Source: Chthonomonadales bacterium (GTDB taxonomy: Bacteria; Armatimonadota; Chthonomonadetes; Chthonomonadales; CAJBBX01). From it: a stretch of DNA of 33,722 nt. The notes under the pieces are model-generated. The model was not told the origin of the DNA and made no database searches. It worked only from the letters and a program-made list of their open reading frames with translations. This document shows, piece after piece, positions 1 to 10,709 of the stretch; the stretch's first letter is position 1; the number at the start of each line of letters is the position of its first letter. The stretch spans positions 70,562 to 104,283 of the forward strand of contig JADLGO010000027.1 of assembly GCA_020849275.1 (NCBI GenBank). The letters run 5' to 3'. The position numbers were made by a program, and so were the translations under genes.

Positions 1-508
1 CGTAGGCGAAGCCGATGCCCGCCCCGGCGAGGAGGCCGATGGTGAGCCAGAGCCCGAGGAGACTGATGGTCTCCGCCGGCCTCGCCTGCAGCAGCAGGCC
101 GGCGACCAGGAAGCCTCCTCCGAGCAGCCCGCCTCCAGCGAGCGCCGTCAGCACCGGGCCGCGCCGGTCCTGCACGCGCCCCGCGAAGACCATCACGAGA
201 GCGAACGCCAGAATGCAGACGCCGAACGCGTACTTGAGCTTGCCGGTCTGCTCCGTGTGGAGCTTGCTGGCGGCGGCCTCGTTCGGCACGCTCACGACGC
301 TCAGGTTGGCCGGGGCGGCGGTTGCGCTGCTGGCGGCTCCCTGAATGATAACGCGCGGGAAAACGTGGTCCTCCAACGGTGTCCAGAAAATGCTGTAGCC
401 GTACACCGTACCGAGGATCAACTGGACGATGACGGCGCCCAGAAGCACCCGCCAGCGAGCCGTTTGCGAGACGGCGAGGGCGGTCGCCGGGGCGGTGGCT
501 GTCGACAT
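1..508 (-). CDS. OFA-family MFS transporter, N-terminal part (cut by window edge)
   Basis: About 169 codons are present; the gene runs off the left edge. The start is ATG at 508, preceded on the minus strand by GGGAGG with 5 nt spacing; an out-of-frame ATG lies 4 nt upstream. Residues 19-35 form a first membrane segment (VLLGAVIVQLILGTVYG), followed by an external loop of about 45 residues. After that come a second segment (YAFGVCILAFALVMVF), the cytoplasmic A-motif-like GRVQDRRGP, and two more glycine-rich segments ending in GLLAGAGIGFAY. That pattern fits the oxalate:formate antiporter (OFA) branch of the major facilitator superfamily, which moves small carboxylates or other organic anions across the inner membrane. 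The substrate cannot be read from this half. It is divergent from gyrA. Confidence 0.72.
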   Translation of the reverse strand, partial: MSTATAPATALAVSQTARWRVLLGAVIVQLILGTVYGYSIFWTPLEDHVFPRVIIQGAASSATAAPANLSVVSVPNEAAASKLHTEQTGKLKYAFGVCILAFALVMVFAGRVQDRRGPVLTALAGGGLLGGGFLVAGLLLQARPAETISLLGLWLTIGLLAGAGIGFAY

Positions 509-8800: not shown

Positions 8801-9937
8801 CTACCGGCTCGCCGCACCGCCGGCCGCGCGCCCGCGAAGGGCGGCGGCGACTCCGGCCTGCGGTGAGGAGAGCGCGAGCCCATCCAGCGCTTCGATCTCA
8901 ACCCATCGCACCTCGGCGCAGTCGCGAGCCTGTGCCCGGCCGCGCGGCGCCTCGCACGCGAGGGCGTGAAGCACGATGGCGTGATGAGTGACGCTGTGGC
9001 GCACCATCGCCACGGTGCCGGTCACGGTGGCGCGCAGGCCGACCACCTCCCGCGCGGCGCGCGCCGCGCAGGCACGCGGGTCCTCGCCGGGCGCGCAGAG
9101 CCGCCTGGGGAACTCCCACAGCCCGCCCCACAGCCCAGTCTCGTGGCGTCGCGCCACGAGCACGCGGTCGCCGCGCCGCACCACGGCGCTGCTGTGTTGC
9201 ACGCGCACGACCCGTCGGCGCGCCGAGGGGCGCGGCCACGCCGTCGGCTCGCGGGTGTGGGCCGCCGCGCAGGCCGGCTCGAGCGGGCACGCGCCGCAGC
9301 GCGGATCGTGGGGCGCACAGACGAGGGCGCCGAGCTCCATCAGCGCCTGGTTGTGGTCGCCAGCACCTCGCCGCGGCACCAACTCCGCGGCGAGCTCCCA
9401 GAGCCGCGCGGAGCCCCGCGCCGACCTCGGCTCGGCATCGACGGCGAACACGCGCGACAGAACCCGCGCAACGTTGGCGTCGACGACGGGAGCCGGTGCA
9501 TCGAAGGCGACCGAGGCGATGGCGCCGGCCGTGTAACGTCCCACGCCGGGCAGTGCCTCGAGCTCGGCGGCCGTCCGCGGCAGGACGCCGCCTCGCTGCT
9601 CGACCAGGCTGCGCGCCGCCGCGTGCAGAGACCGGGCGCGCGCGTAGTATCCCAGGCCAGCCCAGAGGCGCAGTACCTCGTCCAGCGGCGCGCGGGCGAG
9701 CGCCTCCACCGTCGGGAAGCTCGCCATCCAGCGCTCGAAGAAGGGCCGCGCGGTGACCACCCGGGTCTGCTGCAGCATGGTCTCAGAGACCCAGACGGCG
9801 TAGGGGTCGGGCGGAAGAGCGCGCCACGGCAGCATGCGGCGGTTCAACGCGTACCACTCCGCGAGCGGGCCGCGGCACAGCGCGGCCACGTCCGAGGCGG
9901 ACGGCACGCGCGGCTCGAGGGTGCGACTCGTTGACAT
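8801..9937 (-). CDS. mutY: A/G-specific adenine glycosylase
   Basis: This 378-residue base-excision repair enzyme removes adenine mispaired with 8-oxoguanine. The catalytic Glu52 lies in SETMLQQT. The helix-hairpin-helix LPGVGRYTAGAI is at 129-140, and the catalytic Asp153 is in VVDANVARV. The [4Fe-4S] cluster ligands are Cys207, Cys214, Cys217 and Cys223 with exact C-x6-C-x2-C-x5-C spacing. The C-terminal part (about 245-360, with WGGLWEFPRR) is the NUDIX-like 8-oxoG recognition domain. Length is normal. The ATG at 9937 follows AAAGGAG. Both the start and this ribosome-binding site lie inside the divergent tRNA-Pro promoter. Confidence 0.96.
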   Translation of the reverse strand: MSTSRTLEPRVPSASDVAALCRGPLAEWYALNRRMLPWRALPPDPYAVWVSETMLQQTRVVTARPFFERWMASFPTVEALARAPLDEVLRLWAGLGYYARARSLHAAARSLVEQRGGVLPRTAAELEALPGVGRYTAGAIASVAFDAPAPVVDANVARVLSRVFAVDAEPRSARGSARLWELAAELVPRRGAGDHNQALMELGALVCAPHDPRCGACPLEPACAAAHTREPTAWPRPSARRRVVRVQHSSAVVRRGDRVLVARRHETGLWGGLWEFPRRLCAPGEDPRACAARAAREVVGLRATVTGTVAMVRHSVTHHAIVLHALACEAPRGRAQARDCAEVRWVEIEALDGLALSSPQAGVAAALRGRAAGGAASR

Positions 9938-9959
9938 GCGACTCCTTTGACAGTATAAT
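9931..9959 (+). promoter_or_regulatory. Perfect-consensus promoter for tRNA-Pro
   Basis: TTGACA (9931-9936), exactly 17 bp, then TATAAT (9954-9959): a full sigma70 consensus. Transcription would start near 9966, 6 nt before the mature tRNA. The last two bases of the -35 belong to the mutY start codon (9935-9937), and the spacer contains mutY's ribosome-binding site (9942-9948), so polymerase bound here covers the mutY translation start region. Confidence 0.88.
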
Positions 9960-9971
9960 ACCCCCTGTCAG

Positions 9972-10045
9972 CGGGGTGTAGCTCAGCTTGGTAGAGTGCC
10001 TGGATGGGGGCCAGGAGGTCCGCGGTTCAAGTCCGCGCACCCCGA
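9972..10045 (+). tRNA. tRNA-Pro (anticodon GGG)
   Basis: The acceptor stem CGGGGTG/CACCCCG is perfect (9972-9978 with 10038-10044). The D-arm is GCTC with GAGT (one G-U pair). The anticodon stem is CCTGG/CCAGG with loop ATGGGGG, so the anticodon is GGG at 10006-10008, reading CCC and CCU. The T-arm is CGCGG TTCAAGT CCGCG. The discriminator is A10045. The 3' CCA is not encoded (ACG follows), so a CCA-adding enzyme must supply it. C1-G72 fits bacterial tRNA-Pro. Confidence 0.96.
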
Positions 10046-10060
10046 CGCGCGACGTGTCGA

Positions 10061-10091
10061 AAGGGGAGGCAGCCCGGTGCTGCTTCCCCTT
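10061..10091 (+). terminator. Terminator hairpin after tRNA-Pro
   Basis: AAGGGGAGGCAGC (10061-10073) pairs with GCTGCTTCCCCTT (10079-10091): 13 bp with one G-U pair and a 5-nt loop. It begins 16 nt after the tRNA. There is no following U-run. It also separates the tRNA from the convergent GNAT gene. Confidence 0.6.
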
Positions 10092-10157: not shown

Positions 10158-10709
10158 CTATCCCTGCCCGTCCCAGGGCGGACCAAGGGAGCGCAGAACC
10201 ACATCCCACCGCTCCGGGTGCGACGGGTCGGCGTGCTCCGGCACGTAGCCGAGCCGAAGGTAAAGCCGGATGGCCGGCAGCCGCGGGTCGTCCGTCTCGA
10301 GCACGGAGTCGCGACAGCCCTCCTCGCGGAAGCGCTCCAGCGCGCGCACCACGACCGCGGCGCCGAGCCCGAGTCCTCGCGCCGCCGGGTCCGATGCCAC
10401 CCAGTGCAGGTAGCCGCTGCCCGGGTAGCGCTCGGGAATCCGGCGGGCTGAGGCCGTCGCGGCCGGTTCACCTTCGCGCGTCGCGATGTAGACCGCGGCC
10501 ACGTCCGGCGCCCGGGTCAGGTCGCGGCGCACGCGGTCCACCGTCCACTCCGTCTGGAACGCGCGCGCGAGGACTCGCGCGAGGCCGGCCTCGTCGGCGG
10601 GCATGGCCTCGCGGACCTCGCACCCTGGCGGCAGCGCGAGCGCGGGCAGCCCATCGAGGTCCGGGCGGCGCATGAAGAGCTGGCGCGGAGGCGGCGCTTG
10701 GGGGTGCAT
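10158..10709 (-). CDS. GNAT-family N-acetyltransferase
   Basis: This 183-residue protein has one GCN5-related acetyltransferase fold. The acetyl-CoA binding motif is VASDPAARGLGLGAA (R/QxxGxG/A type), followed by the helix ALERFREEGC. The C-terminal part, LETDDPRLPAIRLYLRLGYVPE, is the standard motif B region. Substrate is unknown; it could act on a small amine or on a protein N-terminus. The ATG at 10709 lies 4 nt after the sixA stop, so it is very likely the last gene of the valS-containing run. It converges on the tRNA-Pro terminator. Confidence 0.88.
   Translation of the reverse strand: MHPQAPPPRQLFMRRPDLDGLPALALPPGCEVREAMPADEAGLARVLARAFQTEWTVDRVRRDLTRAPDVAAVYIATREGEPAATASARRIPERYPGSGYLHWVASDPAARGLGLGAAVVVRALERFREEGCRDSVLETDDPRLPAIRLYLRLGYVPEHADPSHPERWDVVLRSLGPPWDGQG

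What the first reader, a model, noticed from the sequence alone, without database searches (positions are those of the whole stretch)
9931..10045. Perfect tRNA-Pro promoter laid over the mutY start codon and ribosome-binding site
TTGACA-17-TATAAT is a full consensus promoter. Its -35 shares two bases with the mutY ATG on the other strand, and its spacer holds the mutY AAAGGAG. mutY transcription must therefore cross this site from the tRNA gene side, giving RNA antisense to tRNA-Pro and polymerase collision. Strong growth-linked tRNA transcription could lower mutY output.
Basis: partly seen in the sequence, partly recalled or inferred. Interest (0 to 1): 0.5.

Follow-up and report, generated by a model that had tools for sequence, protein, structure and literature searches.

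The report
Shared promoter between tRNA-Pro and mutY
A very strong but ordinary tRNA promoter overlaps the start of the DNA-repair gene mutY on the other strand, and the repair gene is probably read from the back face of the same promoter rather than by transcription running backwards through the tRNA gene.

Summary
In detail: TTGACA (9931-9936), 17 bases, TATAAT (9954-9959), then tRNA-Pro(GGG) (9972-10046, +); the mutY ATG (9937, -) shares two bases with the -35 and its AAAGGAG lies in the spacer. The strong promoter is ordinary: 8 of 34 other tRNA upstreams read in this Armatimonadota genome have both hexamers perfect. The head-to-head pair is kept in 9 of 12 family genomes, 6 of 8 genera. 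The claim that mutY transcription must run antisense through the tRNA is not required and probably wrong. The reverse of the tRNA -10 reads TATTAT, bidirectional-promoter geometry, implying an 11-nt mutY leader that starts at AAAGGAG. In 40 mutY loci without the adjacent tRNA-Pro, 12 have a -10 hexamer implying a 0-4 nt leader; the reverse-hexamer control gives 0 of 40. A hairpin lies beyond the tRNA in 9 of 9, but also at an unpaired tRNA-Pro, so it is probably the tRNA's own terminator. Polymerase competition lowering mutY is possible but untested. Known kind, modest interest.

The parts
9931..9936 (+). -35 hexamer TTGACA of the tRNA-Pro promoter; read in reverse with its neighbours it encodes the MutY N-terminus Met-Ser-Thr
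9954..9959 (+). -10 hexamer TATAAT of the tRNA-Pro promoter
9955..9960 (-). reverse -10 candidate TATTAT for mutY (5/6), with -11A and -7T reciprocal to the tRNA -10; implied start about 9948
   Evidence: geometry from PMC12825309 and PMC10268837
9952..9957 (-). alternative reverse -10 candidate TATACT (5/6), implied start about 9945
9942..9948 (-). AAAGGAG ribosome-binding site of mutY; by eye none as clear in the other 8 paired genomes
8801..9937 (-). mutY, A/G-specific adenine glycosylase, 378 aa
9972..10046 (+). tRNA-Pro, anticodon GGG, no encoded CCA
10061..10091 (.). near-perfect G+C-rich hairpin after the tRNA, without a T run; probable end of the tRNA transcript and possible barrier to transcripts from the other side
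   Evidence: not called a terminator
10158..10709 (-). GNAT acetyltransferase, the nearest upstream gene in the same direction as mutY in this genome

Best explanation
One short promoter serves two genes back to back. Facing right it is a full-consensus sigma-70 tRNA promoter. Facing left, the near-symmetric -10 (TATAATA, reverse TATTAT) works as a weak mutY promoter with start about 9948, giving an 11-nt leader that begins at AAAGGAG. Polymerase can sit in only one orientation at a time, so strong tRNA initiation may keep mutY low by exclusion. Shown: sequence, geometry, conservation of the pair, and the placement of mutY -10 hexamers in relatives. Inferred: that the reverse -10 is used, the start site, and any effect on mutY.
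For: Reverse -10 TATTAT or TATACT (at least 5/6) on the back of the tRNA -10, implied leader 1-12 nt, in 7 of 9 paired genomes; in the other two it is 4/6 (G010, 11 nt; G007, 75 nt). In 40 mutY loci without the adjacent tRNA-Pro, a -10 of at least 5/6 falls at implied leader 0-4 nt in 12; no other 5-nt bin exceeds 4; reverse-hexamer control 0 of 40 in that bin. By the kinship table, 10 of these 12 are among the 21 loci of the window's own order and 2 among the 19 others. Pair kept in 9 of 12 family genomes across deep MutY divergence, while the neighbours beyond the tRNA differ; in G006 the neighbour is a poly(A) polymerase on the tRNA's strand, so mutY there has no adjacent gene to be co-transcribed with. 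C. jejuni mutY has a leaderless mRNA (PMC3847290, one passage).
Against: The A after TATAAT that gives the reverse hexamer its first T is common in other tRNA promoters too (24 of 53), so 8 of 9 genomes (5 of 6 genera) is not clear selection; an unpaired tRNA-Pro promoter in G005 has it as well. The reverse -35 is poor (GCTACA, 3/6). The favourable -18T is absent for the reverse start (9966 is A on that strand). G004 lacks the reverse -12T. The 9 genomes are 6 genera, and the 12 relatives are not independent of each other. A same-strand run with valS, RNase PH and a GNAT gene lies upstream in this genome, so read-through is possible. The hairpin also follows the unpaired tRNA-Pro of G005, and on the mutY strand of the window 20 of 200 shuffles fold as well. 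Genome-wide, -10 hexamers do not favour short leaders: in G000 the excess over control is spread over all distances (31 against 7; 13 against 3 at -4..15), and G006 (6 against 5) and G015 (4 against 6) show none. No RNA data.
Confidence: 0.62

Rival explanations
1. One reading: mutY is transcribed by read-through from the valS / RNase PH / GNAT run upstream, crosses the tRNA gene as antisense RNA, and meets tRNA-transcribing polymerases head-on.
For: Same-strand genes lie upstream in G000, and same-strand long ORFs in G003, G004, G007 and G010. In G007 the mutY start is 97 nt from the tRNA with no good short-leader -10. G002 has a promoter-like TATAAT on the mutY strand beyond the tRNA (L063 about 2718, by eye).
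Against: A hairpin stands between tRNA and upstream genes in 9 of 9, though its action as a terminator is inferred; neighbours not conserved, and on the opposite strand in G006; many relatives place a -10 directly before mutY.
Confidence: 0.2
2. mutY has its own separate promoter within the tRNA gene or the tRNA-hairpin gap.
For: A few 4/6 hexamers occur there in G002, G004, G006 and G009.
Against: Within 150 nt of the tRNA 5' end none reaches 5/6 at the -10 in any of 9 genomes, and G000 has no 4/6 one.
Confidence: 0.06
3. The overlap is compact-genome coincidence: mutY is expressed at a low constant level and the tRNA promoter has no regulatory effect on it. Compatible with a shared -10.
For: Two other tRNA upstreams of 32 in this genome have a coding-like divergent ORF whose first start lies under 50 nt away (ORFs not confirmed as genes). 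PMC12825309 found basal activity too low for competition at all five promoters it tested (abstract and passages).
Against: Here one side is full consensus; the same paper saw transcription in the opposite direction greatly reduced after -35 'up' changes (passage).
Confidence: 0.5

Closest known systems
Bidirectional promoters with a shared symmetric -10 (Grainger group; PMC12825309, PMC10268837)
   Same: -11A and -7T reciprocally paired on the two strands; predicted starts 18 bp apart (9966 and 9948); steric exclusion expected.
   Different: One direction is a full-consensus tRNA promoter; the start codon and ribosome-binding site of the other gene lie inside it; the pair is conserved in 6 of 8 genera of a family. 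Divergent RNA is not demonstrated here.
Ordinary sigma-70 tRNA promoters
   Same: TTGACA-17-TATAAT shortly before the tRNA; 8 of 34 other own-genome upstreams are also 12/12.
   Different: Its -35 overlaps a conserved divergent gene start.
Leaderless or short-leader mRNAs, including C. jejuni mutY (PMC3847290, one passage seen)
   Same: mutY of 12 of 40 relatives has a -10 implying a 0-4 nt leader.
   Different: In the window the implied leader is 8-11 nt and holds a ribosome-binding site.

Membership tests
Bidirectional promoter (shared -10) | -11A and -7T of each direction reciprocally paired | tested here: met
   9955 A and 9959 T on +; reverse TATTAT 9960-9955
Bidirectional promoter (shared -10) | Primary transcripts start on both strands, most often 18 bp apart | not testable with these tools
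   Only predicted positions 9966 (+) and 9948 (-)
Bidirectional promoter (shared -10) | Favourable, not required: T at -18 for the reverse start | tested here: not met
   9966 is T on +, so A on the reverse strand
Sigma-70 tRNA promoter | TTGACA, 16-18 nt, TATAAT just upstream of a tRNA | tested here: met
Leaderless mutY mRNA | Transcript starts at or within a few nt of the start codon | tested here: inconclusive
   Window implies 8-11 nt with AAAGGAG; G002, G006, G009 and G011 imply 1-4 nt; no RNA data
MutY adenine glycosylase | TIGR01084 equivalog cut-off | tested here: met
   307.1 bits against 286.5

The most novel reading that the evidence does not exclude
A family-wide exclusion switch: one polymerase-binding site, kept while the surrounding genes changed, gives either tRNA-Pro or a short-leader mutY mRNA. 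Growth-linked tRNA synthesis would then directly set the supply of a mutation-avoidance enzyme, tying mutation rate to growth, and the MutY N-terminus Met-Ser-Thr would be dictated by the tRNA -35 element.
Probability: 0.15. Interest if true: 0.55.

Novelty: new member of a known kind. Interest (0 to 1): 0.32.

Why it matters
If the shared -10 is used both ways, it is a natural case of a bidirectional promoter conserved across genera, with a very strong tRNA side and a DNA-repair side, and a clean place to ask whether polymerase exclusion couples growth rate to repair. It also corrects a tempting inference: overlap of a promoter with a divergent start codon does not imply antisense transcription of the neighbouring RNA gene.

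Tried and rejected
Second TTGACA (9947-9952) and the inverted repeat TGACAG/CTGTCA around the -10: by eye absent from the other 8 paired genomes, so treated as chance.

Selection on the reverse -10 shown by the A after TATAAT: rejected as weak (24 of 53 other tRNA promoters of at least 9/12 have it, out of 98 upstreams read). The G005 tRNA-Pro(GGG) promoter, which is not next to mutY, also reads GGTATAATACC.

Hairpin as a special insulator of the pair: not supported, because the unpaired tRNA-Pro of G005 has one too; G001 and G008 were not read in that call, since my pattern missed their tRNA.

General preference for short leaders: tried with isolated starts in G000 (ribosome-binding-like motif 18 of 55, control 9; 5/6 -10 hexamers near starts only 3; too noisy) and with hexamer-to-ATG distances in about 400 kb each of three genomes (no preference for short distances that stands out).

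Alternative mutY starts: GTG at codons 11 and 17, no AGGA/GGAG before them by eye; TTG 31 and ATG 35 fall inside the conserved core.

Papers: 'tRNA promoter' with 'mutY' gave 0 papers; 'mutY' with 'tRNA-Pro' gave 4, by title and abstract start not about this; 'mutY' with 'leaderless' gave 5, two of which I looked into by passages; 'leaderless' with 'Armatimonadetes' gave 2, by title not about this; a search on bidirectional promoters and tRNA genes listed 12 of 87, none of them on this by title and abstract start. So I found no report of this pair in those searches only. The original 2021 paper on bidirectional promoters is not held and is known to me by recall and through the two later papers.

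Mended counts: an early count of the pair, 6 of 12, was too low because ARAGORN had not been run on L142-L144 (note); it is 9 of 12. My note says '6 of 9 genera'; the family table has 8 genera, so it is 6 of 8.

Full report
OBSERVATION. It is the only TTGACA-16..18-TATAAT in the window. The gene is MutY by NCBIfam. Its ATG is the only start codon between the upstream stop and codon 11.

IS IT UNUSUAL? The perfect promoter is not. The genome has 44 tRNA matches; sequence was delivered for the best 30 loci. Among 34 distinct tRNA upstreams in these (the window's tRNA not among them), 21 score at least 9/12 and 8 score 12/12 with spacer 16-18. Among 32 own-genome tRNA upstreams, 5 have a coding-like divergent ORF starting within 160 nt, and 3 under 50 nt, the window's among them (ORFs other than mutY not confirmed as genes).

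CONSERVATION. The window belongs to Armatimonadota, near Chthonomonadales, judged from the names of the closest named relatives. Of the 12 family genomes held, 9 have tRNA-Pro(GGG) head-to-head with mutY: G000, G002, G003, G004, G006, G007, G009, G010, G011, that is 6 of 8 genera. G001, G005 and G008 do not (no tRNA found in front of their mutY). The distance from the tRNA 5' end to the mutY start is 26-36 nt in 8 of 9 and 97 nt in G007. In G000, G003 and G010 the start is ATG-TCA-AC, the reverse of GTTGACAT; in G004 a GTG stands at the same place, with another in-frame GTG two codons before it. G007 has the ATG there, but in a 19-codon frame that stops (read by eye), and its mutY must start further on. 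In G002 and the three genomes of one genus (G006, G009, G011) the ATG lies in the spacer. A clear AAAGGAG is seen only in the window. A MutY tree of 20 rows needs 3 changes for the pair; 0% of 200 bootstrap trees need only 1, so an origin once would require later losses. The branches between genera are long.

WHERE IS THE mutY PROMOTER? A scan of the mutY strand from 150 nt beyond the tRNA 5' end to the start codon finds, in 7 of 9 genomes, a -10 of at least 5/6, and only on the back of the tRNA's own -10, with implied leader 1-12 nt. G010 has a 4/6 hexamer there (11 nt), and G007 a 4/6 hexamer 75 nt from the start. Elsewhere in that range nothing exceeds 4/6; outside it, G002 has a TATAAT. 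The independent test is mutY in genomes without the adjacent tRNA-Pro. I examined 50 loci, one each from 50 of the 61 genomes (the other 11 were not fetched; 8 of those had only weak matches). One, L160, was dropped because its match starts late, leaving 49, of which 40 are not next to tRNA-Pro. In those 40, a -10 hexamer of at least 5/6 lies at implied leader 0-4 nt before an in-frame start codon in 12; the next-highest 5-nt bin holds 4. With the hexamer read on the other strand the 0-4 bin is 0 of 40. By the kinship table, 10 of the 12 are among the 21 loci of the window's own order, and 2 among the 19 others. Five of the 12 are exact TATAAT (L038, L041, L046, L050, L052). L052 is next to a tRNA-Phe. 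All candidate in-frame starts were allowed for each locus, equally for every bin; the loci are related, so 12 is not a count of independent events. So mutY in this order often carries its -10 immediately before the start codon, which in the paired genomes is the position of the tRNA -10. This is not a general habit of these genomes as far as I could see: about 400 kb each of G000, G006 and G015 show no marked preference of -10 hexamers for short leaders. Campylobacter jejuni mutY is listed among leaderless mRNAs (PMC3847290, one passage seen).

READ-THROUGH. In this genome valS, RNase PH and a GNAT gene lie upstream on the mutY strand, so read-through is conceivable. Against it: a G+C-rich hairpin stands just beyond the tRNA in 9 of 9 genomes (in the window -38.5 kcal/mol, z -3.66, 0 of 200 shuffles as good on +; -30.2, z -1.24, 20 of 200 on -). 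It has no T run and was not called a terminator, and the unpaired tRNA-Pro of G005 has one too, so it is probably the tRNA's own end and its effect on the mutY strand is inferred. The neighbours beyond it differ: GNAT in G000, WD40 repeats in G003, ORFs without a Pfam match over cut-off in G004, G007 and G010, and in G006 a poly(A) polymerase on the tRNA's strand (Pfam was run on G006 only of its genus). The module that stays together is tRNA-Pro plus mutY.

MECHANISM. PMC12825309 (first of 6 parts and passages read) and PMC10268837 (first of 3 parts read) describe bidirectional promoters: reciprocal -11A and -7T, starts most often 18 bp apart, polymerases excluding each other, and reduction of one direction when the -35 of the other is improved. 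Here + 9966 and - 9948 are 18 bp apart and the implied first mutY base is A. Steps shown: sequence, geometry, conservation. Steps inferred: use of the reverse -10 and any competition. Weak points: the A after TATAAT is frequent in other tRNA promoters (24 of 53), the reverse -35 is poor, the reverse -18T is absent, and G004, G007 and G010 fit less well.

VERDICT. Observation confirmed; interpretation partly supported. Antisense crossing is not required and probably not the main route. A shared, strongly one-sided bidirectional promoter is the best reading (0.62). New member of a known kind.

Noticed in passing
window 9947-9952 and 9948-9969: A second TTGACA directly before the -10, and an inverted repeat TGACAG...CTGTCA around the -10; by eye not conserved in the other 8 paired genomes.
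   Followed up: partly
window 10061-10091: A strong hairpin without a T run after the tRNA; a counterpart of different sequence follows tRNA-Pro in all 9 paired genomes and in unpaired G005, perhaps a T-poor terminator type of this family.
   Followed up: partly
L057 (G007), mutY-oriented 1389-1448: An ATG at the -35 as in relatives, but in a 19-codon frame that stops (by eye); mutY must start downstream. Either a start shift or a frame change in this assembly.
   Followed up: no
L063 (G002) about 2718-2790: On the mutY strand beyond the tRNA: TATAAT, a GGAGGAGG site and a 17-codon frame ending just before the hairpin (by eye); could be a small gene or a leader peptide.
   Followed up: no
L052 (G025): mutY here is head-to-head with tRNA-Phe instead, with a separate -10 for each gene and an implied mutY leader of 3 nt.
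   Followed up: partly
window 9972-10045: The whole-window Rfam scan at gathering threshold reported no match, although the tRNA scores 58.4 bits against a cut-off of 29 when a short stretch is scanned with laxer filters: presumably a filter effect.
   Followed up: partly
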